Positions 1,198-14,016 of a stretch of 64,000 nucleotides of DNA are shown piece by piece. Within the stretch, counting starts at the first letter, position 1. Each line of letters starts with the position of its first letter. Below the pieces are notes generated by a model that worked only from the letters and a program-made list of their open reading frames with translations, did no database searches and had not been told where the DNA came from. The position numbers and the translations under genes are program-made. The stretch lies in contig NZ_JBEJGX010000003.1 of NCBI RefSeq assembly GCF_040253635.1, forward strand, positions 372,001-436,000. Direction: 5' to 3'. This DNA is from Streptomyces sp. Edi2 (lineage in GTDB: Bacteria > Actinomycetota > Actinomycetes > Streptomycetales > Streptomycetaceae).

Positions 1198-2469
1198 TCA
1201 ACCCTGCTCTTCGTACTCGACGTGCAGCGTCCGGGCGAGGTGGGCGCGGTATGCCACGGCCGCGGCATCCGACTCGTGACGGGAGACCACGATGGCCGGG
1301 TATCCGGAAAAATCCGGGTAGGGGAGCAGCAGTTCGCCGGGGCTCACGGTCTGCACCACGTAGTCCACCTGCGGGTCGTTACGCACCGAGTCCAAGCCGT
1401 GTACCTGCTTCATCCGTCCTCCGCTGCCGACCGGCACCTCATAGACCGCGACGTGACCGACCAGTGCCGGCTCCTCACGCCAGCAGAGCGGTTCCCGGCC
1501 GAGGTGGATGCGCAGCGCCTCGGCGGCCAGGTCGATCCCGGTGCTGAAGTGGACGAGGTGGTGCGTAAAGCCCCCGCCGCCGAGGCGCGCAGCCATCTCC
1601 AGCAGAACCGGCCGCACCCCACCGACCAGCCGCAGTTCGGTATGCGTGGTGCCTTCCGTGATGCCGAAGGCGTGGTGGGCGCCGATCACCTCCGCCTCGA
1701 TCGCGGTGAGTATCTCGGTGGGCAGTTGGGCGGGGGCCCTGAACATGGTCTCCTCGAAGTAGGGCCCCGCCAGTTCCCCCTTCCAGCTGATGCCACAGAC
1801 CCGTACCTGCCCGTGGTGCACGAGGGATTCTGCGGCGACCTCCGGCCCGTCCAGGTACTCCTCGACCAACACACCGGTTTCTGGGGTCGGTCCGTCGGCG
1901 ACCCCCAGGTGGTGAGTTTCGATGAGCTTCCATGTGCGGGCCACGGCCTGCTCAAGGCAGTCCTTGTCATCCACACGGATCACACCGAGGCTGGAGTGGC
2001 CGTTCGCTGGTTTGACCACGACGGGGAACCGCAAGGCCAGCGCGTCGGTCCAGCCGTCCGGATCCTCGATGGCCACGAAGCCAGGCAAGCCCAGACCTGC
2101 CTCCAGCAGGCGATGGCGCATGCTGCGCTTGTCACGCACCACGGCCGCCGCCTCCTCGGTCAGGCCGGTGAGGCCCAGCTCATGCGCGGCGCGTGCCACG
2201 AACGGCACGACCCTCTCGTTGCCCGCCATGATTCCGTCGAAGGGCTCCCGCCGGTAGCGGTCGGCGAGCGCGGACAGCGCGCCTTCCGGGTCTTCGTCGA
2301 TGTCCAGTGGCAGCAGTTCGACCACCGCGTCGGCCCGCCCAGCGGACTCCGCCGAGTCGTCCCCCCTGGGGACGAGGATCAGGTCGATACCGGCGCGCTT
2401 GGCTGCTTCGAACACCCAGGGGAACACGGACAACTGACCGACGAGGACGAGTTTCGGGCGCTGTGGCAT
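1198..2469 (-). CDS. ATP-grasp carboxylate-amine ligase
   Basis: A 423-residue ATP-grasp enzyme. The family joins a carboxylate to an amine or thiol through an acyl-phosphate, using ATP. Visible elements are an N-terminal Rossmann-like half (KLVLVGQLSVFPWVFEAAKRAG), the ATP-binding lysine stretch VVVKPANGHSSLG, the hinge VLVEEYLDGPEVAAESLV, and the metal-binding glycine-rich end LLEMAARLGGGG. The ATG at 2469 has GGAG 7 bases upstream. It is on the same strand as the deazaguanine genes, just beyond the SARP. It may attach an amino acid or other acceptor to the pathway product, or it may be independent. The substrate cannot be read from the sequence. Confidence 0.8.
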   Translation of the reverse strand: MPQRPKLVLVGQLSVFPWVFEAAKRAGIDLILVPRGDDSAESAGRADAVVELLPLDIDEDPEGALSALADRYRREPFDGIMAGNERVVPFVARAAHELGLTGLTEEAAAVVRDKRSMRHRLLEAGLGLPGFVAIEDPDGWTDALALRFPVVVKPANGHSSLGVIRVDDKDCLEQAVARTWKLIETHHLGVADGPTPETGVLVEEYLDGPEVAAESLVHHGQVRVCGISWKGELAGPYFEETMFRAPAQLPTEILTAIEAEVIGAHHAFGITEGTTHTELRLVGGVRPVLLEMAARLGGGGFTHHLVHFSTGIDLAAEALRIHLGREPLCWREEPALVGHVAVYEVPVGSGGRMKQVHGLDSVRNDPQVDYVVQTVSPGELLLPYPDFSGYPAIVVSRHESDAAAVAYRAHLARTLHVEYEEQG

Positions 2470-2593
2470 GACGGTTCTCCAAGGTTAGGTTGCTTGGGCG
2501 GGTTCGGACAAAGCGTGTCGGCCGGTACGGTCCTGCGTGAGTTGGTCGCGGCGATCACGGAGCCGCGGAACACACCGGTGGCGTACGTCTCCA

Positions 2594-2711
2594 CGTTCCG
2601 TGTGAATTCCCCGAACTGCACCGGGGTGTGGCCCAGCGCGCTGATCAGCCCGCGGAAAGAGTCACGCTCCTCTTCCCAGCCTTTGCGGACGCTGCTGACA
2701 AAGATTCTCAC
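2594..2711 (-). pseudogene. DUF4062-type protein, N-terminal stub
   Basis: The frame starting with GTG at 2711 opens MRIFVSSVRKGWEEERDSF and continues ISALGHTPVQF. This is the conserved start of DUF4062-domain proteins, which are usually several hundred residues long. Similarity ends after about 38 residues. The frame then runs on with non-homologous residues into the ATP-grasp gene. It looks like a gene cut off at its 5' end by a rearrangement between the SARP gene and the ATP-grasp gene. Confidence 0.5.
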
Positions 2712-2843
2712 GCTACGGTGTCTCCACTACTGAAAGCTTCGTCTCTGAGCTTGGCATTCGACCTCGATGCGCTGAGGCGGCCGCCGCGCACCACGCGCCG
2801 GCGACGCGCGATACGACGCAAGGTGGTAAGGGAGCCGTGACCG

Positions 2844-4676
2844 TCAGGCGGAGCACATGACCGGCGCGCTGCTCGCCCGCGCCGCGAACGGGCGTACCCC
2901 AGGCTCCCATTCGTAGGAGAACCGGCCGTTCACGCACGGGTGCTGCGCGCGCAGCAGGTAGCTCTCCGCCAGCTCCTCCAGCAGGTCCTCGGCCCGCTGG
3001 TCGCTGATCCCCAGGGCCGCCGCGACAAGCGCCGGCGTGAGCCGGTCGGGGACGCCGGGAGACAACAGCGCGTACGCCAGGGGCCGCAACTCGGCGGGCA
3101 GCGTCGCGAGCGTCCGGTCGAATCCGGCCCGCACGCCCAGCGGATCGCTGTCGGCGCCCCCGGACGCGAGGACCCAGGCAGTGGCCTGCCGGGCCGTCCA
3201 GTGCGGGCGGCGGCGCAACTGCGAAGCGACCGCGAAGAGCACGCCCGGCAGCCCCCGGCACAACCGGGCCAGCCGTCGCAGCCCCTCCGGGTCCATGGTG
3301 ACCCGGTGGCTCGGCACGGAGGATGCCAGCAGGTGCAGACAGTCGTCGAAGGGCAGTCCGGCCAGTTCGACGTGGACCGCCGACGAGGAAACGAACAGCC
3401 GCCGACGGCTGCCGATCACCACGCCGCAGCCGGCGCCGGACGGCAGCAGCGGCGTCAAGTCCCGTACGCCGCACACGTCGTCGAGCACCACCAGGACGCG
3501 CAGGTCGGCGGTCCAGGTACGGAACAGCAGGCTCAGGTCGGTCGTGCCCAGCCGCAACTGCTCCTCCGTCGCGCCGAGTCCACGCAGGAACGAGCGGAGG
3601 ATGTCGGCGGGCGGCACCCGCCGGCCGGCACCGTCACGGAGACGCGCGTAGAGCCGTCCGTCCGGGTAGTGACCGCTCACCTGATGCGCGGCGTGCAGGC
3701 ACAGCTCGCTCTTCCCCGTGCCGGGGGCACCCCCCACGATCACGAGCGGCCGGTCCTCCCGAGCCCGGCCGGCCAGCACCGCGGTGAGGCGCGCCAGCTG
3801 GCCGGCGCGTCCGGTCAGAGGCTCGCGCGGGGCGGGCAGATGGCAGGGCGCCCGGGTGGCGGCGGTCACGGCCGTAAGCCGCCCGGCGGGACGCAGCAGC
3901 GCCTCGTCCGACGTGAGCACGGCCGTGTGCAGGGACTGGAGTTGGGGCGAAGGGTCGAGACCCAGCTCGGTGGCGATCCGCTCGCGTGCCCGACGGTAGA
4001 CCTGGAGCGCTTCCGCCCGCCGGTCCATGCGGTAGAGAGCTGTCATCAGATTGCCCTGGGCCCGCTCGTCCGTCGGTTCCCGCCCTGCCATCGAGGTGAG
4101 TTCGCCGAGCATCTCGTGGTGCCGGCCGAGGTGCAGGTCGGATTCGATCCGCAGGTGGTGTGCGCTGGTACGCAACTCCTTCAGGCGGACCGCCTCGGCC
4201 TTCAGCGTGGGCCCCTTGCGTACGTCCACCAGGGCGTCGTCCCGCCACAGCTGCAGCGCCGCGGCGGCCGTGTCGCGGGCCCGCGCGAAGTCCTCGTCAC
4301 GGAACTCCGCTCGGGCACGGGCGAGCAACGGCTCGCACCGGAAGGCGTCCACGTGGTCGGCGGGCAGCGACAGCTGGTAGCCGCCGTCTACCGTGCCCAG
4401 CAGCGGCCCGGCCGCCCGTACCGAGCCGCCGCTCCTCGGATTGCCGAGGGAGAACCGCTTCCTGAGCTGGTACACATACGTCTGCAGCGCGGTGTGCGCG
4501 CTGGCCGGCGGGTTGTCGTTCCACAGCTCGTCCATGAGTTGCTCGAAGGGCACCACCCGGCCCGCGTTCAGCACGAGCATCGCCAGTGTCTGACGTACTT
4601 TCTGGGCGGCCGGCGCCATGTCGACGCGGTGATCGTCCCCGTAGGCCTGGAGCGGCCCGAGAAGGTTGATTCTCAT
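2844..4676 (-). CDS. SARP/AfsR-family transcriptional activator with NB-ARC domain
   Basis: A 610-residue pathway-specific activator. Residues about 1-100 form an OmpR-like winged-helix domain (MRINLLGPLQAYGDD, LMDELWNDNPPASAHTALQTYVYQLRK). Residues about 105-255 form the bacterial transcriptional activation domain (ALYRMDRRAEALQVYRRAR, ELGLDPSPQLQSLH). The rest is an NB-ARC ATPase with Walker A GGAPGTGKS and Walker B-like VLVVLDDV. No C-terminal TPR array follows, so the protein is shorter than classical AfsR. SARPs bind direct heptamer repeats near the -35 of antibiotic genes. It lies 106 bases downstream of the dioxygenase gene on the same strand and probably activates the deazaguanine operon. 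Confidence 0.9.
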   Translation of the reverse strand: MRINLLGPLQAYGDDHRVDMAPAAQKVRQTLAMLVLNAGRVVPFEQLMDELWNDNPPASAHTALQTYVYQLRKRFSLGNPRSGGSVRAAGPLLGTVDGGYQLSLPADHVDAFRCEPLLARARAEFRDEDFARARDTAAAALQLWRDDALVDVRKGPTLKAEAVRLKELRTSAHHLRIESDLHLGRHHEMLGELTSMAGREPTDERAQGNLMTALYRMDRRAEALQVYRRARERIATELGLDPSPQLQSLHTAVLTSDEALLRPAGRLTAVTAATRAPCHLPAPREPLTGRAGQLARLTAVLAGRAREDRPLVIVGGAPGTGKSELCLHAAHQVSGHYPDGRLYARLRDGAGRRVPPADILRSFLRGLGATEEQLRLGTTDLSLLFRTWTADLRVLVVLDDVCGVRDLTPLLPSGAGCGVVIGSRRRLFVSSSAVHVELAGLPFDDCLHLLASSVPSHRVTMDPEGLRRLARLCRGLPGVLFAVASQLRRRPHWTARQATAWVLASGGADSDPLGVRAGFDRTLATLPAELRPLAYALLSPGVPDRLTPALVAAALGISDQRAEDLLEELAESYLLRAQHPCVNGRFSYEWEPGVRPFAARASSAPVMCSA

Positions 4677-4782
4677 GAAATTCGCCCTGTCTCATGTTCG
4701 TTCGGTCCCCGTCACACCGGCCGGCGACGCCACCGCCAGGCCACTCGGGCCGGGCGGTGAGGATGTGCTCGGCCGCCCGGTG

Positions 4783-5808
4783 TCAGGAACTCCTGGAGCC
4801 GGCTCCCGCGGCCAGGTTCGGGTGGTGTCGGGCAACGATGTCGGGGAAGGAACGGATCAGCCCCTTCATGACGTTGTCGCCGTAGAGGGCGAACAACGGG
4901 TTGCCGACGACGTCGATGACTCCGCCGGCGCCCTCGACATAGGGGCTGGGCAGCGGCTGCATCGTGGCGTCCAGCCGCGGGTTGTAGAAGAAGGGAATGG
5001 AGTAGCGGTTGACGCCCGGGGCGGGCCGGACCACCCGGTGGAGGGTGGCACGCACATAGCCCCTCGTCGCCACCTCCAGCAGCTCTCCCAGGTTGACCAC
5101 GAACGCCCCCGGGATCACCGGCACGTCGACGAACTGGCCGTCCTCGATCGCGACCTGGAGGCCGCCGTTGTCGTCCTGGACGAGCAGGGTGAGCAGCCCG
5201 AGGTCGTTGTGGATGCCGGTCCCCTGGCCAGAGCCGTCGTCCTCGCTCGTCTGCGTGCGACCGGGGTAGTGCAGGAGCTTGAGGTGGATCTGCGGATCCG
5301 GATCGACCACGCCGTCCAGGAACCCGGCGGGGGCGTCCAGCGACTCCAGCATCAGCCGTAGCAGTTGATGTGACAGATCGCTCAGCCGGGCGATCCATGA
5401 CTCGATGGCCGGACGCAGCTCGGGCATCGCCTTCGGCCACTCGTTCGGGCCGATCAGGCACCGGTAGGCGGGATCGCCGGGCTCGGGCGGCCTCGCGGGC
5501 TGCTCCGGCCCGATGTCCAGCTGCCGGCGCTGGTCGGGAATGCCCTTGGTGTGTTCGCGGCCGAGTTCGGAGTAGCCGCGGAACAGCGGCGAGTCGAGGA
5601 TGTTCAGCGCGAGCCGGTCGGCCTCGGGCAGGGCGAAGAACCGGCGGGTGAGCTCGAGCATGTCGTCGGCGTCCTCGATGCCGTGGCCGACGAGCTGGAA
5701 GAAGCCGATCTCGTGCACGGCCTTGCGCAGCCGGCGCAGGAACTCTGCCCGGGCTTCTTCCGAACCGGCGGCGTCACGGAGGTCGAGCACGGGAAAGGTG
5801 TCGGTCAC
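4783..5808 (-). CDS. Isopenicillin N synthase-type Fe(II)/2-oxoglutarate oxygenase
   Basis: About 341 residues from the GTG at 5808 (VTDTFPVLDLRDA). That GTG has GGAG just upstream and overlaps the queC stop as GTGA. The protein has the N-terminal DIOX_N region (GFFQLVGHGI) and the double-stranded beta-helix core. The iron triad is HND (IHNDLGLLTLLVQDD) plus a distal histidine in LHRV, and the 2-oxoglutarate- or substrate-binding RxS is RYSIPFF. Family members hydroxylate, desaturate or cyclise small molecules. Translational coupling to queC makes it very likely a tailoring enzyme of the preQ0-derived product. A longer ATG-started frame exists upstream but would lie inside queC and is not credible. 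Confidence 0.88.
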   Translation of the reverse strand: MTDTFPVLDLRDAAGSEEARAEFLRRLRKAVHEIGFFQLVGHGIEDADDMLELTRRFFALPEADRLALNILDSPLFRGYSELGREHTKGIPDQRRQLDIGPEQPARPPEPGDPAYRCLIGPNEWPKAMPELRPAIESWIARLSDLSHQLLRLMLESLDAPAGFLDGVVDPDPQIHLKLLHYPGRTQTSEDDGSGQGTGIHNDLGLLTLLVQDDNGGLQVAIEDGQFVDVPVIPGAFVVNLGELLEVATRGYVRATLHRVVRPAPGVNRYSIPFFYNPRLDATMQPLPSPYVEGAGGVIDVVGNPLFALYGDNVMKGLIRSFPDIVARHHPNLAAGAGSRSS

Positions 5809-6494
5809 GGCAGCTCCTTCGAATCGCTGGTCTGGTAGGTCGTCGGGTCGGCCACGCCGGCGTCCCGGAACGCTTCCTGGCGCTCCCTGCAGGCGGCGCA
5901 CCGTCCGCATTGCAGCGCGTCGCCGCGAAAGCAGCTCCAGGTCTCGGTCCAGGGGACGCCGAGTTCCTCACCGAGCGACACCACGTCGCTCTTGCGCAGC
6001 CTGACCAGCGGCGCGGTCAGGGTCAGGTCGGGGTGCGCGTATCCGCGGGTCGCGATCCGCTCCATGGCGAGGAAGGAATCGATGAACGCGGCATTGCTGT
6101 CGGGCGCGGCCTGCAGGTCGTCTACCACCCCGACGGCCACCGCTTCCGCCTTCTCGGCGACGGCGACCGCGAAGGCGACGGACAGCAGAAGGGCATTGCG
6201 GTTGGGTACGACGTTCGGGCTCCCGCCGGACGAACCGCTCTGGTGGTCCGGTACGTCGACGGTCGGGTCGGTGAGTGAGGAGCCGCTCAGGAGCTTGCCG
6301 ACGGGGCTGAGATCGACGACGTGGTGCGGCACCCCGAGCGATCGAGCCGCCTTTGCGGCGAACTCGTGCTCGACGAGATGACGCTGGCCGTAGTTCACGG
6401 ACAGCAGGTGGAGTGTGTGGCCTTGCGCCTGGAGGTGGTAGGCCATGGTGACCGAGTCCAGGCCGCCGGACACGATTGCGACAGTTTTCGGCAT
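5805..6494 (-). CDS. queC: 7-cyano-7-deazaguanine (preQ0) synthase QueC
   Basis: A 229-residue cytoplasmic enzyme. It converts 7-carboxy-7-deazaguanine to preQ0 with ATP and ammonia. The PP-loop SGGLDS follows the N-terminus, NVVPNRNALLLS lies in the middle, and the zinc cysteines are CFRGDALQCGRCAACR near residues 190-207. Length is normal for the family. It is translationally coupled (GTGA) to the downstream dioxygenase gene and follows the other preQ0 genes. No queF, tgt or dpd gene is present nearby, so the preQ0 made here is unlikely to be destined for tRNA queuosine or DNA modification encoded in this window. Confidence 0.97.
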   Translation of the reverse strand: MPKTVAIVSGGLDSVTMAYHLQAQGHTLHLLSVNYGQRHLVEHEFAAKAARSLGVPHHVVDLSPVGKLLSGSSLTDPTVDVPDHQSGSSGGSPNVVPNRNALLLSVAFAVAVAEKAEAVAVGVVDDLQAAPDSNAAFIDSFLAMERIATRGYAHPDLTLTAPLVRLRKSDVVSLGEELGVPWTETWSCFRGDALQCGRCAACRERQEAFRDAGVADPTTYQTSDSKELP

Positions 6495-6596
6495 GCGTCG
6501 CCTTCCGGCAGACGGAAAGGGATGGAGGATCAGTACGTAAGGATCAGGACAGCGGAGCGCTGTGCACCGCAGCAGCGGCGGACGTGCGGGCGTCCG

Positions 6597-7577
6597 TCAC
6601 GGCGCCGGCGTGGCCGGGACGAGCAGCCGGGTCGCTCGGTGGCCCTTGCGGTAGGTCAGTTCGACTTCGGGCCGCGGACCGTCCAGCCTCGTGGTGACGG
6701 TTCGCTCCTCGCTCCACCCGACCAAGCGGTACTCGTGGCCGCCGAGGGCCACCAGCGGGAAGAGGTGGTCCTGGGGAGATCGAATGGCAAGGTCCGTGCC
6801 GGTGTCAACCATGCTGAAGGTGGCCTGCGGCTGCGGGCCGGTGAGCGACCCGAACTCCTCTATCTCCAGCAGGTGCGCCGGCGCGTCGAACGAACACCGC
6901 GCAGCTTCCCGCTCTCGGTCGGTCGTGGCCACGACCGGACGGTTGTAGAGCACGTCGGGGCCGTTGAAGTAGTCGGCCCAGTCAGCCGGGAACAGCCGTG
7001 CGAGCTCCGGTGTGACGAGCACGTCCACAACGAGATGCACCCGATGCTCGGGACCGAGGTTCTGGATCTGGTGCTTGCGGCTGAAGTCGCCGAACCAGAA
7101 CTCACCGGGCTGCCAGCGATAAATTTTCCCGTCAAGATCCAGCGAGGCTTCCTCGTGGGTGATGACCGGGATGTGCAGTCGGGCCATACCCCAGTCCGGG
7201 GAGAACTTGCCATCGGAATGGCGGTATCCGACGACGCCGGGTCCGAGGTCCAGGAATCGGGCTGCGTAGAGGGGTCCTGGAATCGAGCTCAGGGTCTCCC
7301 GCACGTACGGCATGTGGTCCAGCCACTCGGTGTCTGCGAACTCCGCACTGCCAGGGCCCCCTGGGTCGGTACGTGTCTTGTCACCGTCGGGGCTGCGCAC
7401 CGGGAGGCAACGCCAGTCCTGTTCGGCCCACCTGGACACTCGCCCGTTCTCGTACGAGCTCTGCTCATCCCACAGGTGGTCGCGCGCAGTCATGAGGTCG
7501 GCCAGCAGCCGGTCGGCGTCCAGCACGGGGAGCAGCCGAGCCGCTTCCGCAGGCGCCGAAGAATCATTTACGTTCAT
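6597..7577 (-). CDS. Aspartyl/asparaginyl beta-hydroxylase-type dioxygenase
   Basis: About 326 residues from the ATG at 7577 (MNVNDSSAPAEAARLLP). This start is preferred over an upstream start because AAAGGA lies just before it. The core has the AspH/proline-hydroxylase signature: ARLHIPVITHEEASLDLDGK, then WQPGEFWFGDFSRKHQIQN, then EHRVHLVVDVLV. This provides the iron-binding His and Asp/Glu pair and the distal His of the cupin-like fold. Family members hydroxylate Asp/Asn, free proline or other amino acids using 2-oxoglutarate and Fe(II). Its place between folE and queC suggests a tailoring role, perhaps on an amino-acid-derived part of the product. The substrate is unknown. Confidence 0.85.
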   Translation of the reverse strand: MNVNDSSAPAEAARLLPVLDADRLLADLMTARDHLWDEQSSYENGRVSRWAEQDWRCLPVRSPDGDKTRTDPGGPGSAEFADTEWLDHMPYVRETLSSIPGPLYAARFLDLGPGVVGYRHSDGKFSPDWGMARLHIPVITHEEASLDLDGKIYRWQPGEFWFGDFSRKHQIQNLGPEHRVHLVVDVLVTPELARLFPADWADYFNGPDVLYNRPVVATTDREREAARCSFDAPAHLLEIEEFGSLTGPQPQATFSMVDTGTDLAIRSPQDHLFPLVALGGHEYRLVGWSEERTVTTRLDGPRPEVELTYRKGHRATRLLVPATPAP

Positions 7578-7671
7578 CGTTGTCCTTTCATGCCGACCGG
7601 CCCGGATTCGCATGTGTGTCGAAGAGAACGGCTTCTGTTCGCTGCTCTCCGACTCGGAGTCGGACGGCTCG

Positions 7672-8262
7672 TCACGCCCGGAGCAAGTCGAACAGCTCGC
7701 TCCGGAGCCCGGAGTCCGTGCTGAACTCCCCGCGATATGCGGTCGATGTCATCTGCGCGGCAGCCTTGATGCCGCGCATCGACATGCAAAGGTGCTCGCC
7801 CTTCGCTATGACCGCGACGTCCGGGGTGCCGCTCAGGGTGCTGATCTCGAGCGCGATCTGGTCCACGAGGCGCTCCTGGACCTGCAGCTTGTGCGCGTGC
7901 TGATGGGCGACCCTGGCAAACTTCGACAGGCCGAGCAGTTGCCCGGTCGGGCGGTAAGCGATCGTCACGGAGCAGTTGAACGGCAGGAGGTGGTGCTCGC
8001 ACAGCGACCAGACCTGAATGTCTGAGACGACTACGAGCTGGCTCGTGCCGATGGACTCGAAAAGAGTGCCCAGCGAACCCGGGTCGTAGTTGATGAACTC
8101 TCGCCACCAGCGGGCGAACCTGTCAGGTGTGTCGCGCAGTCCGTCGCGGTTCGGGTCCTCGCCGATCTCCACCAACAGTTGGCGGGCGATCTCGACCAGT
8201 GGGTCCTCGGTCGTCCTCGACGCTGACGGGTCACCATCGAGGTCCAATTTTGTCACCGCCAT
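7672..8262 (-). CDS. folE: GTP cyclohydrolase I FolE
   Basis: A 196-residue enzyme that opens GTP to 7,8-dihydroneopterin triphosphate, the first step of folate and of 7-deazaguanine biosynthesis. The signature is intact: the zinc site CEHHLLPF, VAIAKGEHLCMSMRGIK with the third cysteine, and RVAHQHAHKLQVQERL. The N-terminus is a normal short actinobacterial extension. It sits between queD and the AspH-type oxygenase, so it is most likely the dedicated precursor-supply copy of this cluster rather than the folate housekeeping copy. Confidence 0.97.
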   Translation of the reverse strand: MAVTKLDLDGDPSASRTTEDPLVEIARQLLVEIGEDPNRDGLRDTPDRFARWWREFINYDPGSLGTLFESIGTSQLVVVSDIQVWSLCEHHLLPFNCSVTIAYRPTGQLLGLSKFARVAHQHAHKLQVQERLVDQIALEISTLSGTPDVAVIAKGEHLCMSMRGIKAAAQMTSTAYRGEFSTDSGLRSELFDLLRA

Positions 8263-8290
8263 GCGGTCACCTTTCTTCTGGGCTTCGGAG

Positions 8291-8662
8291 TTACTGACCT
8301 GACGGCCGGTACTCGGCCCACGTCTTGGGAGTTTCTGAGATACGCACGCAGGTCAACTCGGGAAAGTCCATCGACCATGTCTTGTAGACCCAGGCTGCCA
8401 TATTCTCAGCCGTCGGATTTTCGTCCATCACATCGTTCAGATGCCGATGATCAAGATGCTTGTCGAGCCAGACCTTGAATGCGGACAGTTCTCCGTAGTC
8501 TCGAACGAAGCCCACGGGCAACAGATCCGTATCGTCGGCTCCGAGCTCCAACTCGATCACATAGTTGTGCCCGTGCATTCGGGCACACTGGTGTTCAGGA
8601 GCAAGGCCGGCGAGCTGATGACTGGCCGAGAATTCAAATTTCTTCGTGATTCGAAAAGCCAT
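8291..8662 (-). CDS. queD: 6-carboxy-5,6,7,8-tetrahydropterin synthase QueD
   Basis: A 123-residue PTPS-family enzyme converting dihydroneopterin triphosphate to 6-carboxytetrahydropterin. Zinc-binding histidines are at about 15 (FSASHQL) and 30/32. The catalytic cysteine motif is CARMHGHNY (C-x3-H-G-H). The acidic and histidine residues of the second active-site half appear in DHRHLND and NPTAENMA. It starts 36 bases after the queE stop and ends 28 bases before folE, within the compact operon. Confidence 0.95.
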   Translation of the reverse strand: MAFRITKKFEFSASHQLAGLAPEHQCARMHGHNYVIELELGADDTDLLPVGFVRDYGELSAFKVWLDKHLDHRHLNDVMDENPTAENMAAWVYKTWSMDFPELTCVRISETPKTWAEYRPSGQ

Positions 8663-8698
8663 CGATCCGAGTTCCCTCTCCTTTGCGCGTGCCGTTGC

Positions 8699-9412
8699 TC
8701 ACACGCCGCGTTTTTCGTCCCACAACAAGGTGTGCAGCCTGGTCGTCAGGTTCCAGCCGCGCTTTACCACCGCGTCGGCCAACTCGCCCATGTGCTTTGT
8801 GACATCGTCGGCGGTACGCCCGATCGGCATGATCCATACCGAGGGCAGGTCGAAAGTGGCAACCAGTTGGGCCACTTCGTCGAGATCGTGGGTGTTCTGG
8901 CAGACGAACTTGAACGTGCTTTCCGGCACTGCCGAAAGACTGGTGAGTGCGGCAGGGACGATCCTGCGCTGCAGGGTGTCTCCCGAGTGCGACAGCTTCG
9001 GCGAGACGTTGAACCGGACGCCGGCGGCGATGAGTTCGGGGTGCGCGGCGTGCGTCCCGTTGGTCTCGATCTCGATCTCTTTGCCGCGTCCGGTCAGTGC
9101 TGCCACCAACGGAATCAGGCGCTCCTGCTGCCCCAGGGGCTCACCGCCGGAGATCACTATCAGGTCGGTGTCGAATGCGAGCAACTCCGCGACGACATCG
9201 TCGACCGGGCGGCGGTGCAGTTCCTTGCGCGGATCGTGGGCGACCCCGCCCTCGGCGGCGCCGGTCCAGTCCCATGTGTAGGGCGTATCGCACCACGAGC
9301 ACGACAGATTGCACCCGCCGAGCCGCAGGAAAGCGCACCTGCGTCCCAGGGACCGGCCCTCGCCCTGGACGGTGGGGCCGAAGACTTCGTTGACTACGAG
9401 ATCCTGTTCCAT
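8699..9412 (-). CDS. queE: 7-carboxy-7-deazaguanine synthase QueE (radical SAM)
   Basis: About 237 residues from the ATG at 9412 (MEQDLVVNEVFGPTVQGEG), with AGGA about 10 bases upstream. A longer upstream frame would overlap the methyltransferase gene and has a non-protein-like composition. The radical-SAM cluster motif C-x3-C-x2-C is at residues 34-41 (GGCNLSCSWCDTPYTWDW), followed by VISGGEPLGQQ and IEIETNGT. QueE contracts 6-carboxytetrahydropterin to 7-carboxy-7-deazaguanine. It is 13 bases downstream of the methyltransferase stop. Confidence 0.96.
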   Translation of the reverse strand: MEQDLVVNEVFGPTVQGEGRSLGRRCAFLRLGGCNLSCSWCDTPYTWDWTGAAEGGVAHDPRKELHRRPVDDVVAELLAFDTDLIVISGGEPLGQQERLIPLVAALTGRGKEIEIETNGTHAAHPELIAAGVRFNVSPKLSHSGDTLQRRIVPAALTSLSAVPESTFKFVCQNTHDLDEVAQLVATFDLPSVWIMPIGRTADDVTKHMGELADAVVKRGWNLTTRLHTLLWDEKRGV

Positions 9413-9425
9413 GGCGGCCCGTTTC

Positions 9426-10208
9426 CTAGGAGGGGGACGGCTCGACGGCCGCCGGCTTCTGCGCCTGGACGATGAACCAGTGCCGGCTGAGCCGGACACC
9501 CTGCTCGACGGACACCGCGGCGACATAGCGATCGAACGCTTCCTTGTCCGCCGCCGAGTCGTAGTTGTCGACGATCGGCACTTGATGCAGAAAGGTGTCC
9601 AGGTCCGCCGGCGAGTGGTAGAACTCCTCGAACCGAAAAGCCTGGTTGCGTGTCACGACGAATCCCGCGTCGGACAGTTCTTGGGCGATCCGCTCCGACA
9701 GGGGCCTGCCGTTCCAGCTGTCGAAGTCCTGGCCGCGGCCGAACGTCTCCTTCAGCTCGCGGGCGTCCTGCTCCCCGATCCCCATGTACATCACGACCCC
9801 GCCGGGCCGCAGCACCCGCTCGATCTCACGGACGATCAGCGGACCGCGGCGGGAGGTGACGACATCGGCGTATCCGTCGGGCAGTCCCGTGTGGGCGGCG
9901 TCGCACAGCGCGAAGGTGACGTGCGACAGGCCCGCCTCCGCCCGGTACCGTTCGGCGCATTCCAGCATCGACGGCGACAGGTCCATCCCGGTCACGGCTC
10001 CGTACGCGGGAGAGACGCGCAGCAGACTGCGTCCGTCGGCGCAGCCAACATCCAGCAGCCGGGCGTGCGGCGTTCCCAGTGCGGTCGCCAGTTCGTCGAA
10101 GGCGGTGTCCGGGCGGCCGTCGGGGAACACGTCGGTGCTCCGCGCGTCGCTGAAGTAGCCGCCGAACCGCTCGGCCACCCGGGAGTAGAACTCCGCGTCC
10201 ATCGTCAT
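9426..10208 (-). CDS. Class I SAM-dependent methyltransferase
   Basis: A 260-residue Rossmann-fold methyltransferase. Motif I is LLDVGCADGRSLL, motif II is around GMDLSPSMLECAER, and the post-motif is LRPGGVVMYMGIGEQ. The substrate-binding C-terminal half (SWNGRPLSERIAQELSDAGF) is unassigned. The ATG at 10208 overlaps the stop of the small upstream ORF as ATGA. Being the first full-size gene of the preQ0 operon makes it a tailoring enzyme candidate, for O-, N- or C-methylation of the deazapurine or its side chain. Confidence 0.88.
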   Translation of the reverse strand: MTMDAEFYSRVAERFGGYFSDARSTDVFPDGRPDTAFDELATALGTPHARLLDVGCADGRSLLRVSPAYGAVTGMDLSPSMLECAERYRAEAGLSHVTFALCDAAHTGLPDGYADVVTSRRGPLIVREIERVLRPGGVVMYMGIGEQDARELKETFGRGQDFDSWNGRPLSERIAQELSDAGFVVTRNQAFRFEEFYHSPADLDTFLHQVPIVDNYDSAADKEAFDRYVAAVSVEQGVRLSRHWFIVQAQKPAAVEPSPS

Positions 10209-10402
10209 CGGCCGTGCACCTTCCGCTGAGCCACGGTCGAGGTACGGCCCCGGTGCGCACGCACCGGTTGCCCGCTTTCCCGTGGGAACTCCCTGACCAG
10301 GTCCGCCGCCACTGTCGCGGGGGACGCTGCGCTGCGCTGCGCTTCGGTTTCCGGGACGCCGGACGCGGCGGACTTCACCGCGTCCCGGGTCACTACGGTC
10401 AT
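10205..10402 (-). CDS. Small 65-residue ORF leading the preQ0 operon
   Basis: The frame has an excellent ribosome-binding site (AAGGAG 7 bases before the ATG at 10402). Its stop overlaps the methyltransferase start (ATGA at 10208-10205), which is the coupling used throughout this window. The product begins MTVVTRDAVKSAA and ends RTSTVAQRKVHGR. It is hydrophilic and Arg-rich at its end, with no membrane segment or recognised domain. I do not recognise the family. It could be a small structural or chaperone-like subunit, a precursor or leader peptide, or a translational leader that sets expression of the operon. A GC-rich hairpin (CCCC-TGAA-GGGG at 10425-10436) lies just upstream in the likely 5' leader. 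Confidence 0.55.
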   Translation of the reverse strand: MTVVTRDAVKSAASGVPETEAQRSAASPATVAADLVREFPRESGQPVRAHRGRTSTVAQRKVHGR

Positions 10403-10628
10403 TGGTCTACTCCTTGAGGGCCGTCCCCTGAAGGGGCGCCGAGGTCGGCAGGACCCACTCTCCGGCGCCGCCCTATCGGCCCGGCATCACGGCGCATCCA
10501 CGGCGGGGCCGGGCCGGGATAAGGCGGTGATGGCGCGAGCATGCGACTGCGATGGGCGGCGGGTCCACGCTGGTGACAGCAACGCCCGGACGGATCGCGA
10601 AACGGGTCGCGCGGCGAGGAGAACGGAG

Positions 10629-10772
10629 ATGGCCATGACGAAGTTGCCGGCTGCCACGGAGGCCGCTGTCGTACGGGTGCCGGGCGCACCAGGACGTGGG
10701 CACGGCGTGGCGCAGGGTCAGGTGGCCATGCCGGCCGGCGACACGCCCATCGGCAACACGCCGTGGACGTGA
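10629..10772 (+). CDS. Short 47-residue ORF, possibly truncated
   Basis: The ATG at 10629 has AGGAG 7 bases upstream, and a second in-frame ATG is two codons later. The peptide begins MAMTKLPAATEAAVV and ends GDTPIGNTPWT. The IGNTP near the end resembles the conserved IGNTPL of cysteine-synthase-type PLP enzymes, so the ORF may be the stub of a truncated gene. A genuine small peptide cannot be excluded. It is divergent from the preQ0 operon and convergent with the second SARP gene. Confidence 0.35.
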   Translation: MAMTKLPAATEAAVVRVPGAPGRGHGVAQGQVAMPAGDTPIGNTPWT

Positions 10773-10794
10773 CGGACCGGCACTCCTCTCGGCC

Positions 10795-13710
10795 TCAGCC
10801 GACCGACGTCATCGGCCTGCCCAGGATGGCAACGATGTCGGACCGTACGGCGGCGGCCCCGCTGTGATCGAGGATCCGCTCCCGGATCCTGGCCGATCGC
10901 GAGTAGTACCGGACGGCCTGGTCCCCGCGACGCAGATGGGCGTTGACCCGGCCGAGGTCGTGCAGCACATATCCCTCTCCGACGAGGTCGCCGCTCGCCC
11001 CCACCATGGCGAGGACTTCGAGGAGAGTCCGTTCCGCCGCCTCGTACCGCTCCTGGTACATCAGCATCTGGCCCAGCCGCCGCAGTGCGAGGGCCTGCCC
11101 CCGGTCGAAGCCGGCCGACCGGCAGATGCCGAGGGCCTCGTCGAGAGAGGAGCGGGTTCGCGTGAAGTCCGCCCGCCGCATGGTGATATGGGCCATCTCG
11201 CCGAGCACGTACGCCCGGCCGATCACGTCCTGCACCCGCACGAAGTGGCGCTCGGCGCTCTCGTAGAGGGCCAGTGCCCGGTCGTCGTCACCGTGGTGGC
11301 GCTCGATGCGGGCCAGGTCGCGCAGGCACAGCGCCTGGCCGCGCACCTCGCCGATGCGTTCGAAGATCTCCAGAGCGGCGCTGAGGTACGGGCCCGCCGC
11401 CTCGTGCTCGCCGCGGTACAGGTGCAGGGTCCCCAGCGAGCCGAGCACCGCCGCCTGGCCCCGTTCGTTGCCGGTCTGCTGCACTGCGGCCAGCGCCACC
11501 CGGTGGGTGCGCTCCCAGAGCTCCGGGTAGCCGCGGGCCTCGAAGAGCGTCACCAGGGCCGTGGCCAGCTCCCAGCACAACTCGTCCAGCCCGGACCGGG
11601 CCGCCATCTCGACCGCGTTCAGCAGGTTGGCCTGCTCGCTCTCCAGCCACCCGAGGGGGTCGCGGAGGCAGCTCCGGACGTGGTTCTCCGGCGGATACCA
11701 CCGCTCGCCCCGGCCGGCCACGAGGGTGTACGTACCGCCGTAGATCTCCTTGTGCGCCCGTTCCACGAGGGCCATCCAGCCACCGACCATGCGCCGCACC
11801 GCTCCGGCGCGTTCCGCCTCGGTGCTCTCCTCGGACAGCCGCTCGCGCGCGAACATCCGCACGATGTGCCACATTCCGCACCGGAACTCCCCATCCCGGT
11901 CCATCGCGGTGATGTCGAGGAGCCGCATGTCGATCAGTGGTTCCAGCAGGTCGGTGGGGTGCGGCGTGGAGTCGTCGAGCAGGGCGGCACCCAGCCAGCT
12001 CGGAATCTCCGTCCCCTCGGCGAGACTGAGCAGGCACAACAGCCGACGGTCGGCCGCCGCCAGGCCGTCGTAGCTGAGCGAGAGGCTCGCCCGGATCGAC
12101 AGCTCGCCGTGTGCCAGCTCGTCCAGCCTGCGCTGCTCGTTCTCCAGCCGGTGCCACATGGAGGTCAGCGACCAGTGCGGGCGCGCGACCAGGCGCGCGC
12201 CGATGATGCGCAGCGCGAGGGGCAGCCCGCCCACCAGGCGGATGAGGTCCCCCGCCGCCTCCAGCTCGCTCTCCACACGCTGCTCTCCGATGATCCGCCC
12301 CAGGAGCTGGACGGCCTGCACCTGGCTGAGCGGCTCCACGTCGAACCTGCGGGTGCCCGGGAGCGCCGTGAGCTGGCCACGGCTGGTGACCAGCACGCCG
12401 CTGGCGCCGGTTCCGGGCAGCAGCGGCATCACCTGGGACTCGCTGACCGCGTCGTCCAGCAGCACCAGGATGCGGCGGCCGGCGAGCAGACTGCGGTACA
12501 TCTCCGCGCGCTCGTCGAGCGCCTCGGGTATGGCCTGGCCCGGGACACCCAGCGCGCGCAGGAACCGCCCCAACACCTGTGCGGGCCCCACCAGTTGTCC
12601 GCTCGCCTCCCGCAGGTCGCAGTAGAGCTGTCCGTCCGGGAAGTGCTCGGTGGCGAGCCGGTGCGCCACATGCCTGGCCAGCGTGCTCTTGCCGACACCG
12701 GGTCCGCCGAGCACCAGGACCACGTTCAGCTGCCCCTTGTCCTGCCCCTCGGTGACGGCGTCGCCGACCGCCGAGACGAGTGTCTCGTCGGCCACGAGGT
12801 CGCCGATGTCGGCGGGGAGCTGCCTGGGGGTGACGACCAGGTCGCGGTCGGCACCGCGCTCCTGCGCGGCCTCGGAGCACGGCGCCTGTGCGACAGCCCG
12901 CGATTCGGCAGGTTCGGCCAGTGCCAGGTCGGGGTCGTCGGTCAGGATCGCCTGCGCCAGATCGCGCAGTTCCCTTCCTGGTTCCAGGCCCAGTTCCTCG
13001 GCGAGCATCGCGCGGCCCTGATGGTAGGCGTCCAGCGCCTCCGCCTGCCGGCCCGAACGGTACAGCGCCACCATGAGGTGGCCCCGCAGCCGCTCCCGCA
13101 GCGGTTGGCAGCCGACCAGCTGCATCAGCTCACCGACCAGGTGCTCGTGCCGGCCCAGCTCCAGCAGCAGCCGCATGCAGGTCTCCACCGCCTCCAGGCG
13201 GCGCTCGTCCCACTGCGCCGCCGTACCGGCCAGGGCCTCGCTGGGCAGCCCGGCCAGGCACCGGCCCCGCCACAGGCCCGTCGCCGAGCGCAGCCTCTCC
13301 ACCGCCGGCATCTTTCGGCCGTCACCGGCCAGGGCGTGCGCCTCTGCCACCAGGCGACGGAAGGTGCCGATGTCGGTCGCGTCCTCCGGCGCCCTCAGGA
13401 TGTACCCGCGCGCGCGGGTCTCGATGGTGGCGTCCACTCCCCCGTCCGAAAGTGCCTTGCGGAGGCGGGAGATGCAGATCTGCACCTGGGCGCGTGCGGT
13501 CTTCGGCGGGTCGTGAGCCCAGAGGGCGTCCACCAGACGGGTCGTCTCCACCACCCGGTTCAGTTCGAGCACCAGCGCCCCGAGGACGATCTCCTGACGC
13601 CCGGGCGCCACGGATACCGGCCCCCGCTCACCGCTCACTTCAAGGGGCCCGAGAACACGGATGGGAGCCGCTGCTGCGCCATTGCCGTCGTAATCTGATG
13701 AGACTGCCAT
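10795..13710 (-). CDS. AfsR-like SARP regulator with NB-ARC and TPR domains
   Basis: A 971-residue regulator with the complete AfsR architecture. An OmpR-like winged helix spans about residues 17-110 (IRVLGPLEVSGERGPV, LVDALWAHDPPKTARAQVQ) and a BTAD domain about 115-265. The NB-ARC ATPase has Walker A VLGGPGVGKSTLA, Walker B RILVLLDDAV and GGLPLALRIIGARL. C-terminal tetratricopeptide repeats run about 690-960 (for example EHEAAGPYLSAALEIFERIGE). AfsR-type proteins activate secondary metabolism, often after kinase or ligand input. It is on the same strand as the preQ0 operon but convergent with the short 47-residue ORF. It probably gives a second layer of cluster control. Confidence 0.93.
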   Translation of the reverse strand: MAVSSDYDGNGAAAAPIRVLGPLEVSGERGPVSVAPGRQEIVLGALVLELNRVVETTRLVDALWAHDPPKTARAQVQICISRLRKALSDGGVDATIETRARGYILRAPEDATDIGTFRRLVAEAHALAGDGRKMPAVERLRSATGLWRGRCLAGLPSEALAGTAAQWDERRLEAVETCMRLLLELGRHEHLVGELMQLVGCQPLRERLRGHLMVALYRSGRQAEALDAYHQGRAMLAEELGLEPGRELRDLAQAILTDDPDLALAEPAESRAVAQAPCSEAAQERGADRDLVVTPRQLPADIGDLVADETLVSAVGDAVTEGQDKGQLNVVLVLGGPGVGKSTLARHVAHRLATEHFPDGQLYCDLREASGQLVGPAQVLGRFLRALGVPGQAIPEALDERAEMYRSLLAGRRILVLLDDAVSESQVMPLLPGTGASGVLVTSRGQLTALPGTRRFDVEPLSQVQAVQLLGRIIGEQRVESELEAAGDLIRLVGGLPLALRIIGARLVARPHWSLTSMWHRLENEQRRLDELAHGELSIRASLSLSYDGLAAADRRLLCLLSLAEGTEIPSWLGAALLDDSTPHPTDLLEPLIDMRLLDITAMDRDGEFRCGMWHIVRMFARERLSEESTEAERAGAVRRMVGGWMALVERAHKEIYGGTYTLVAGRGERWYPPENHVRSCLRDPLGWLESEQANLLNAVEMAARSGLDELCWELATALVTLFEARGYPELWERTHRVALAAVQQTGNERGQAAVLGSLGTLHLYRGEHEAAGPYLSAALEIFERIGEVRGQALCLRDLARIERHHGDDDRALALYESAERHFVRVQDVIGRAYVLGEMAHITMRRADFTRTRSSLDEALGICRSAGFDRGQALALRRLGQMLMYQERYEAAERTLLEVLAMVGASGDLVGEGYVLHDLGRVNAHLRRGDQAVRYYSRSARIRERILDHSGAAAVRSDIVAILGRPMTSVG

Positions 13711-13788
13711 GCATGACCTGCTTCTGTGCTGTTAGCCAGGCGATGTGGTCCGGCTTGCCAAGGTGGGTGGAACGCATACCGACCTGCC

Positions 13789-14016
13789 TCATAAGTCGTA
13801 ACCGTCGGCCGCGTAGCCGAGCACCTTCAGAAGCCCGGCCGCCGCCGACCGCAGCGCGGTGACCTCCACCCGCCCACGCGACAGGCGGAGTCGTACCAGG
13901 GCGGCCGGGGCCGGGCCCGGCGCGGGCGCGGCCGACGTCGGCGCGCCTTCCCACGGCTGCCCACCCGCCGCTGTCTTCAGGGGCGGGGAGAACCCCACCG
14001 AGGTGGTGTCGTTCAT
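13789..14016 (-). CDS. Small 75-residue ORF with a terminal TTA codon, upstream of the SARP
   Basis: The frame starts at ATG 14016 with a GGAG about 10 bases upstream and begins MNDTTSVGFSPPLKT. It has a Pro/Ala-rich middle and a more protein-like end (LSRGRVEVTALRSAAAGLLKVLGYAADGYDL). The last sense codon is TTA (plus-strand 13792-13794), the rare leucine codon that in Streptomyces depends on the bldA tRNA. It stops 78 bases before the large SARP gene. I recognise no family. It could be a small cluster gene, or a bldA-sensitive leader influencing the SARP. Confidence 0.4.
   Translation of the reverse strand: MNDTTSVGFSPPLKTAAGGQPWEGAPTSAAPAPGPAPAALVRLRLSRGRVEVTALRSAAAGLLKVLGYAADGYDL

What the first reader, a model, noticed from the sequence alone, without database searches (positions are those of the whole stretch)
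1198..14016. Candidate undescribed preQ0-derived natural-product cluster with two different oxygenases and an ATP-grasp ligase
Seen: folE, queD, queE and queC in one minus-strand operon with a SAM methyltransferase, an AspH-type oxygenase and an IPNS-type oxygenase translationally coupled to queC. Two SARP regulators flank them, and an ATP-grasp ligase lies beyond. Known: these four enzymes make preQ0, the precursor of queuosine and of pyrrolopyrimidine antibiotics such as toyocamycin, sangivamycin, tubercidin and huimycin. Inference: no queF, transglycosylase, phosphoribosyl- or glycosyltransferase or dpd gene is nearby, so the product may be a free deazapurine base, oxidised and methylated and possibly joined to an amino acid by the ATP-grasp enzyme. 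I know of no described cluster with this enzyme set.
Basis: partly seen in the sequence, partly recalled or inferred. Interest (0 to 1): 0.85.

Follow-up and report, generated by a model that had tools for sequence, protein, structure and literature searches.

The report
Peptide-linked deazaguanine antibiotic-type gene cluster
This soil bacterium carries a conserved set of genes that appears to build a modified guanine base and fasten it to a small peptide, using a repurposed enzyme that databases still label as the maker of a different compound.

Summary
SARP, methyltransferase, queE, queD, folE, AspH-type oxygenase, queC, 2OG oxygenase, SARP and ATP-grasp recur in order in 10 other actinomycete genomes (74-98% identity; ATP-grasp in 10 of 11, first SARP called in 10 of 11). 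The window cuts the cluster. Left of it lie SbnA/SbnB (diaminopropionate synthesis), thioesterase, MbtH, NRPS, MFS, circularly permuted ATP-grasp and FemAB-like genes; NRPS and SbnB occur in 11 of 11 genomes, linkage shown in 9. This "QueC" belongs to one clade without the base-stacking Tyr of YPDC (E. coli Y131A makes no queuosine) but with the Asp that reads the guanine edge. Within 10.5 kb an ATP-grasp was found at 21 of 22 such loci and 0 of 24 canonical QueC loci. The genome shows no TGT or QueF. Best reading: a peptidyl-7-deazaguanine cluster in which the QueC-like enzyme joins carboxy-deazaguanine to an amine instead of making preQ0. Peptidyl deazapurines and "deazapurine amide-bond synthetases" were reported in 2025 (title and one citing sentence seen), so I file it as a variant of a known kind.

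The parts
10795..13710 (-). SARP/AfsR-type regulator with NB-ARC and TPR (971 aa)
   Evidence: Pfam BTAD 146 bits; 80-96% identical orthologue called at the same place in 9 of the 10 relatives, not in Kutzneria L060
9426..10208 (-). SAM methyltransferase (260 aa)
   Evidence: Pfam Methyltransf_11; in 11 of 11 orthologous clusters; homologue near 9 of 10 sister-clade (GPSDTS/GPRDTS-type) QueC loci
8699..9412 (-). [quoted passage not shown]
   Evidence: Radical_SAM; TIGR03365 99.8 bits, under its cut-off of 206; CxxxCxxC present
8291..8662 (-). QueD, carboxytetrahydropterin synthase (123 aa)
   Evidence: PTPS 101.8 bits; TIGR03367 80.8 bits against cut-off 89.25
7672..8262 (-). FolE, GTP cyclohydrolase I (196 aa)
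   Evidence: PF01227 176.7 bits; NF006826 174.8 bits over its cut-off 162; TIGR00063 158 bits under its cut-off 182
6597..7613 (-). AspH-type Fe/2OG oxygenase (338 aa, or 326 aa from the ATG at 7577)
   Evidence: PF05118 44 bits; orthologues of 81-93% in 10 of 10 relatives; best solved relative L-proline cis-4-hydroxylase, weak, 9e-5
5805..6494 (-). QueC-like enzyme, predicted deazaguanine amide synthetase (229 aa)
   Evidence: PF06508 178 bits, TIGR00364 151.7 against 150.3; APDS in place of YPDC and F189 in place of Y; one clade with other Tyr-less QueC; model pLDDT 90.6, nearest 2pg3, 3bl5, then Cap9 9nto_B
4783..5808 (-). Fe/2OG-dependent oxygenase of the DIOX_N family ('IPNS-type' in the finding), GTG start overlapping queC (341 aa)
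   Evidence: PF14226 and PF03171; EFE-like 9ovh 3e-53; homologue within 10.5 kb of 22 of 22 Tyr-less QueC loci (one of them 9.3 kb away) and 0 of 24 canonical
2844..4676 (-). second SARP regulator with NB-ARC (610 aa)
   Evidence: BTAD 144 bits; in 11 of 11
1198..2469 (-). ATP-grasp L-amino acid ligase (423 aa)
   Evidence: ATP-grasp_4 and LAL_C2; BL00235 L-amino acid ligase 3vot 8.6e-71; 10 of 11 orthologous clusters

Best explanation
The operon is the truncated part of a roughly 40-kb cluster for a peptidyl-7-deazaguanine. FolE, QueD and QueE make 7-carboxy-7-deazaguanine (CDG) from GTP. The QueC-like enzyme adenylates the carboxylate of CDG, or of a methylated or oxidised CDG, and joins it to an amine as an amide instead of making preQ0. 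The likely amine is an amino acid: diaminopropionate made by SbnA/SbnB, or the first residue handled by the NRPS. The NRPS (A-T-C-A-T), the L-amino-acid ligase ATP-grasp, the circularly permuted ATP-grasp and the FemAB-like protein build the peptide part. The methyltransferase, the AspH-type oxygenase and the 2OG oxygenase decorate it. SARPs regulate and an MFS exports. Shown: gene content, conservation, active-site changes, one clade of QueC-like enzymes, neighbour association. Inferred: every chemical step after CDG, and the roles of regulators and exporter.
For: Core operon in 11 of 11 genomes, bar the first SARP (10) and ATP-grasp (10). NRPS (89-95% identity) and SbnB (90-97%) in 11 of 11; circularly permuted ATP-grasp in 11 of 11. 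SbnA 366 and SbnB 405 bits, both over cut-off. QueC-like: of 181 aligned rows (some duplicates) 53 have Tyr and 1 Phe at the YPDC Tyr; 127 have Pro, Ala, Val, Thr or Gly. In those 127 the guanine-edge Asp, Tyr35 and Arg99 are kept in 127 of 127, the Zn cysteines in 126 of 126 with letters. E. coli Y131A and Y189A are dead (PMC13329287). In Cap9 the Tyr stacks on the base and the Asp reads N1/N2 (PMC13279940), and Cap9 joins CDG to a protein N-terminal Gly amine. The Tyr-less rows are one clade, 100/99, also with the discriminating columns removed (SH-aLRT 98). Within 10.5 kb: ATP-grasp at 21 of 22 Tyr-less and 0 of 24 canonical loci; methyltransferase 20 of 22 and 0 of 24; EctB-type aminotransferase at 8 of 10 sister loci and 0 of 24. 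No TGT, no QueF in the genome; no preQ1 riboswitch at threshold in the window or L003.
Against: No biochemistry. TIGR00364 (preQ0 synthase) is still passed, by 1.4 bits. Cap9, the one QueC homologue shown to make a CDG amide, keeps the Tyr, so losing it is not itself the mark of amide formation and may mean an altered base. A Phe at position 189 was not among the mutants in the passages I read. Foldseek ranks canonical QueC above Cap9. The amine partner is not known; 2 of 10 sister loci have no EctB in reach, and the AspH-type enzyme is found at 11 of the 22 Tyr-less loci only, those of this cluster. The ATP-grasp is absent next to the operon in G315. Linkage of the NRPS half to the queC half is not shown in 2 of 11 genomes (contig ends). 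The FemAB-like protein of the own genome is below Pfam's cut-off.
Confidence: 0.68

Rival explanations
1. One reading: QueC still makes preQ0, and the methyltransferase and two oxygenases then modify the free base, with the ATP-grasp perhaps adding an amino acid elsewhere.
For: Catalytic ATP, Zn and Asp residues are intact; passes TIGR00364; FolE, QueD and QueE present.
Against: Loss of the Tyr residues essential for queuosine formation in E. coli, shared by a whole clade; NRPS and diamino-acid genes conserved in the cluster.
Confidence: 0.14
2. The amide to the deazaguanine carboxylate is made by one of the other ligases (ATP-grasp, circularly permuted ATP-grasp, FemAB-like), and the QueC-like enzyme only makes the primary amide (7-amido-7-deazaguanine) or acts on a modified base.
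For: Other ligases and an NRPS in the cluster; loss of the stacking Tyr suggests a changed base substrate; QueC/ToyM is described as an amide as well as a nitrile synthetase (PMC6112128 passage).
Against: The ATP-grasp is missing next to the operon in G315; its nearest solved relative is a ligase of free amino acids (specificity recalled); the QueC-like enzyme keeps the residue that reads the guanine edge.
Confidence: 0.2
3. The queC-oxygenase operon and the NRPS/diaminopropionate genes are two separate clusters that happen to be neighbours.
For: In the own genome the exporter-NRPS part and the FemAB/permuted ATP-grasp pair are split by transposase-like (by eye) and other genes; in G635 and G639 the parts lie on different contigs.
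Against: All 11 genomes, from Streptomyces and Kutzneria, hold both sets, on one contig in 9 and contiguous in G315 and Kutzneria; named Amycolatopsis and Actinoplanes strains (two each) also have close AspH, QueC and permuted ATP-grasp homologues.
Confidence: 0.07

Closest known systems
Peptidyl deazapurine natural products and deazapurine amide-bond synthetases (Ji et al., JACS 2025, doi 10.1021/jacs.5c13285; seen only as a title in the reference list of PMC13144596 and one citing sentence there)
   Same: By title: deazapurines joined to peptides by a dedicated amide-forming enzyme family; the citing sentence says two such products came from refactored clusters in S. albidoflavus J1074.
   Different: Not known: the paper is not held, so neither its enzyme family nor its gene clusters could be compared.
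Cap9 of type IV CBASS (PDB 9nto; passages of PMC13279940, parts of PMC13329287, listing of PMC11996544)
   Same: QueC-fold enzyme that activates CDG and uses an amine other than ammonia; Asp for the guanine edge; Foldseek match 3e-12.
   Different: Cap9 keeps the stacking Tyr, works on a protein N-terminus and sits beside a CD-NTase; none of these was found here.
Canonical QueC / ToyM (preQ0 synthase)
   Same: SGGxDS, YxQxHxxE, VPxRN, the conserved Lys, Zn Cys4; operon with FolE, QueD, QueE.
   Different: YPDC reads APDS and Tyr189 reads Phe.
Toyocamycin, sangivamycin, tubercidin and huimycin clusters
   Same: Shared FolE/QueD/QueE-type steps (PMC6112128 and PMC7439116 passages).
   Different: No phosphoribosyl- or glycosyltransferase among the 22 own-genome proteins scanned; NRPS, diaminopropionate genes and ATP-grasp instead.
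Echiguanine A (Streptomyces sp. MI698-50F1)
   Same: Recalled as a 7-deazaguanine-7-carboxamide; named among the deazapurine antibiotics in PMC6112128.
   Different: No gene cluster for it turned up in the searches.

Membership tests
[quoted passage not shown]
   SGGLDS, YGQRHLVE, VPNRN, K168 in the window protein
[quoted passage not shown]
   APDS in the window; of 181 aligned rows 53 have Tyr, 1 Phe and 127 neither. The two groups are defined by these columns; the trees separate them as well
[quoted passage not shown]
   Phe189 in the window; Tyr in 6 of the 126 Tyr131-less rows with a letter there
[quoted passage not shown]
   C(x)7CxxCxxC here, but an actinobacterial QueC with YPDC, P0240, also has x7, so the spacing does not discriminate
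Cap9 deazaguanylase | H(x)4YxDCxxxF and a CD-NTase neighbour | tested here: not met
   No Tyr at the site; no CD-NTase among the own-genome proteins scanned with Pfam
Queuosine pathway | QueF and TGT in the genome | tested here: not met
   0 matches each in the own genome; controls ring in 14 of 14 (TGT) and 8 of 14 (QueF)
dpd DNA-modification island | DpdA, a TGT-family enzyme | tested here: not met
   No PF01702 match in the genome
Pyrrolopyrimidine nucleoside antibiotic cluster (toyocamycin type) | ribosyl or sugar transfer to the base | tested here: not met
   No such family in the 22 own-genome proteins scanned; genes further away not scanned
Diaminopropionate-making NRPS cluster | SbnA and SbnB beside an NRPS | tested here: met
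   TIGR03945 366 bits (cut-off 350) and TIGR03944 405 bits (cut-off 327); NRPS A-T-C-A-T
Peptidyl deazapurine cluster (Ji et al. 2025) | presence of the published amide-bond synthetase | not testable with these tools
   Paper not held; only its title and one citing sentence were seen
Peptidyl deazapurine cluster (Ji et al. 2025) | product is a deazapurine amide of a peptide | not testable with these tools
   needs chemistry

The most novel reading that the evidence does not exclude
A clade of actinobacterial QueC, at present annotated as preQ0 synthase, has been rebuilt once into nucleobase-peptide ligases. In this cluster the enzyme acylates the amine of the NRPS-bound first residue (A1 code read by hand as DILQLGLVWK, close to a Gly code that I recall) with CDG on the assembly line, so that 7-deazaguanine serves as the N-cap of a nonribosomal peptide. 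This would be the small-molecule counterpart of Cap9 capping a protein N-terminal glycine.
Probability: 0.22. Interest if true: 0.82.

Novelty: new variant of a known kind. Interest (0 to 1): 0.6.

Why it matters
It turns a set of genes that automatic annotation calls 'preQ0 synthesis' into a predicted nucleobase-peptide pathway, and gives a two-residue sequence test (no Tyr at YPDC, usually Phe at 189) for picking out such enzymes: 15 of the 39 QueC loci looked at in one family-wide sample (of 43 found) have it. It also makes a direct experiment out of how QueC-fold enzymes change their nucleophile from ammonia to amino acids or proteins, a question raised by the 2025-2026 work on Cap9 and QatC.

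Tried and rejected
Paper searches listed no paper that I recognised as describing this gene set; the one directly relevant title is not held. The GATOR-GC paper (12 of 13 passages) treats preQ0 and dpd clusters and shows nothing on this one in those passages. Five QueC genes were flagged with an in-frame TGA: three were read, and the TGA is only the terminal stop. The 461-aa orphan without a Pfam hit belongs to a circularly permuted ATP-grasp family by its homologues' precomputed domains and names. The 4-hydroxyphenylglycine-like genes (window coordinates -19541 to -15789) were set aside because none was matched in the relatives' stretches. Eighteen other AspH homologues (33-48% identity) have no QueC match in the stretches of up to 20 kb taken, so AspH is not diagnostic for the wider class. 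Zn-motif spacing was rejected as a discriminator. A diversity-generating-retroelement reading of canonical QueC neighbourhoods was not supported by a repeat scan of two loci.

Limits: gene calls are from a simple home-made caller that misses small genes; it missed QueD in 4 of 11 clusters, the window included, where the ORF is plain. In the neighbour test the profiles were seeded from this cluster and its kin and grown on the same gene set, so remote ATP-grasps near canonical QueC could be missed; the Tyr-less QueC form one clade, so the 22 and 24 loci are not independent. L156 (Tyr-less, ATP-grasps nearby) was left out of the 22 because its QueC was not called whole; 4 of the 43 QueC places were not fetched (G283, G047, G287, G363). 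The 181 aligned QueC rows hold duplicates (loci and database proteins of the same strain), and the 30 phylum-wide loci are the best-scoring ones of a longer list. The tree dropped rows at least 85% identical to another and under 190 aa: 105 of 181 remained; its bootstrap had not fully settled.
Full report
What was checked. Spacing is operon-like: methyltransferase, queE, queD, folE, aspH and queC follow each other at 13, 36, 28, 58 and 102 bases, and queC overlaps the oxygenase by 4 bases with a GTG start. Key motifs of QueE, FolE, QueC and both oxygenases are present. The 'IPNS-type' protein is an Fe/2OG oxygenase whose best solved relative is an ethylene-forming-enzyme-like protein (9ovh, 184.6 bits); isopenicillin N synthase scores 41 bits at best. 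The ATP-grasp is closest to L-amino acid ligase BL00235 (3vot, 8.6e-71).

The cluster is larger than the window. The window begins at base 372001 of contig C3. To the left, on the same strand, lie SbnA (window coordinates -1324 to -371 as called) and SbnB (-2358 to -1339), both over their NCBIfam cut-offs for 2,3-diaminopropionate synthesis, an MbtH-thioesterase reading frame (-3306 to -2362), a 1644-aa NRPS (-8255 to -3321; A-T-C-A-T by Pfam) and an MFS exporter (-11354 to -10014). Further left, beyond transposase-like (by eye) and other genes, are a circularly permuted ATP-grasp (-24656 to -23271) and a FemAB-like protein (-26121 to -24973; 21.7 bits, below Pfam's cut-off of 27).

Conservation. 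A family-wide sample (394 genomes, 32 with an AspH match) gave two genomes with close AspH orthologues, G365 and G315, both with the operon in order. A scan of one genome per species gave eight more: S. rhizoryzae, S. kronopolitis, Streptomyces sp. NRRL S-337, S. iranensis, Streptomyces sp. NBC_00568, S. filipinensis, Kutzneria buriramensis, S. olivochromogenes. Counting the window, the methyltransferase, QueE, FolE, AspH, QueC, oxygenase and second SARP are in 11 of 11; the first SARP was called in 10 of 11; the ATP-grasp follows in 10 of 11, G315 having a FemAB-like gene and the NRPS there instead. Identities to the window run from 74% to 98%. The NRPS (89-95%) and SbnB (90-97%) are in 11 of 11, the circularly permuted ATP-grasp in 11 of 11, SbnA in 9 of 11; in the other two, G635 and G639, the contig ends beside SbnB. 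In these two the NRPS lies on another contig than the queC operon, so linkage is not shown there; in the other 9 it is. The orthologous AspH group is clear-cut: 20 nearly full-length homologues at 79-93%, then full-length ones at 55% and below (the best 120 of 242 are listed).

The QueC-like enzyme. Libby et al. 2026 (PMC13329287; parts 1 and 2 of 5 read) define canonical QueC by SGGxDS, YxQxHxxE, VPxRN, YPDC, Lys165, Tyr189 and a zinc Cys4. Y35A, R99A, Y131A and Y189A abolish queuosine formation, and Y131F keeps part of it. The window protein keeps these except the YPDC Tyr and Cys and Tyr189: YPDC reads APDS and Tyr189 reads Phe. In an alignment of 181 QueC rows (the window, 60 loci and the 120 listed hits; duplicates included) the YPDC Tyr is Tyr in 53, Phe in 1 and neither in 127 (Pro 63, Ala 43, Val 19, Thr 1, Gly 1). 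At position 189 the 54 all have Tyr and the 127 have Phe 96, Leu 12, Met 10, Tyr 6, Val 2, one gap. The groups are thus defined by these columns. The Asp two residues on (D132 here) is kept in 127 of 127 and 54 of 54. In the Cap9 structure the Tyr stacks on the deazaguanine and that Asp reads its N1/N2 edge (PMC13279940, passage). The 30 best-scoring QueC loci of a phylum-wide sample all have Tyr189, and 29 have the YPDC Tyr, 1 Phe. The 56 Tyr-less rows of a 105-row tree form one clade nested among canonical actinobacterial QueC (100/99; bootstrap not fully settled), also when nine discriminating columns are removed (SH-aLRT 98, quick method).

Neighbour test. Among 46 loci with QueC called, 22 are Tyr-less (11 of this cluster, 10 of the GPSDTS/GPRDTS type, 1 of the ETGDC type) and 24 canonical. 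Within 10.5 kb: ATP-grasp 21 of 22 against 0 of 24; 2OG oxygenase of this family 22 of 22 (one at 9.3 kb) against 0 of 24; methyltransferase 20 of 22 against 0 of 24; AspH 11 of 22 (this cluster only) against 0 of 24; EctB-type aminotransferase 8 of the 10 sister loci against 0 of 24 canonical. EctB identity was confirmed for three of these proteins (585.9, 595 and 610.9 bits against cut-off 552.2). EctB makes diaminobutyrate and SbnA/SbnB diaminopropionate (family knowledge), so a diamino acid recurs beside Tyr-less QueC. The own genome has no TGT and no QueF match, so CDG has no queuosine or dpd-type outlet there, and no preQ1 riboswitch reached threshold in the window or L003.

Mechanism. 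FolE, QueD and QueE give CDG. QueC-fold enzymes activate the CDG carboxylate with ATP; in Cap9 the attacking amine is a protein N-terminus (PMC13279940 passages). The most economical reading is that the Tyr-less clade uses small-molecule or carrier-bound amines, with NRPS, ATP-grasp ligases and FemAB-like proteins building the peptide and the methyltransferase and oxygenases decorating it. Against this: Cap9 itself keeps the Tyr, so its loss may report a modified base rather than a new nucleophile; both could hold, since the methyltransferase is nearly as constant as the ATP-grasp. The A-domain codes, read by hand, are DILQLGLVWK (close to a recalled Gly code) and DNWNVTEVTK (unassigned).

Known or new. 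[quoted passage not shown] The paper is not held. Its title matches the class deduced here from sequence, which both supports the reading and removes the claim of a wholly undescribed kind. No held paper joins deazaguanine, diaminopropionate and gene cluster, and only the citing one contains 'peptidyl deazapurine' or 'deazapurine amide'. I therefore file the finding as a new variant of a known kind. The QueC signature of this clade, its grouping and the neighbour association I did not meet in the listings or in what I read of PMC13329287 (parts 1 and 2, and a term search of its whole main text for natural products and Streptomyces, with no occurrence).

Noticed in passing
L158:9628-17072, L162:9637-17123 (also L159-L161 by eye): Canonical queC-queD-queE operons of Streptomycetaceae are followed by a reverse transcriptase (RVT_1) and an FGE-sulfatase-domain protein (both loci), and in L158 by a DpdC-like DUF6884 protein (below cut-off), a radical SAM protein, a phosphoribosyltransferase and a glycosyltransferase that also matches 'GT4-conflict'. 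It may be a conflict or retroelement system that uses deazaguanine; no direct repeat of 40 bases or more was found in two loci.
   Followed up: partly
own genome, window coordinates -19541 to -15789 (L080:15459-19211): Aminotransferase, HPPD-like dioxygenase and FMN-dependent dehydrogenase in a row, a pattern recalled from hydroxyphenylglycine synthesis, inside the stretch that splits the cluster in this genome; not matched in the relatives' stretches.
   Followed up: no
own genome, window coordinates -12435 to -11512 (L003:2565-3488): Ornithine-carbamoyltransferase-like gene next to the MFS exporter, below the NCBIfam cut-offs; possibly carbamoylates the diamino acid, but not matched in the relatives' stretches.
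   Followed up: no
L003:2453-2528: Group II intron structure (RF00029, 55.7 bits) within the left part of the cluster.
   Followed up: no
L055:16799-17635 and L058:16323-17159: In two relatives the place after the ATP-grasp, which holds a PF10014 2OG oxygenase in six others, is taken by a WelO5-like protein (28.2 bits against 27 for the L055 protein; L058 by its N-terminus): a possible halogenase variant of the product.
   Followed up: no
L041, L052: AspH-type and 2OG oxygenase homologues with an ATP-grasp but no QueC match in the 20-kb stretch: a related oxygenase-ligase pair without deazaguanine genes.
   Followed up: no
window 13789-14016: A 75-aa reading frame upstream of the first SARP, 91% identical in L055, called in no other relative.
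   Followed up: no
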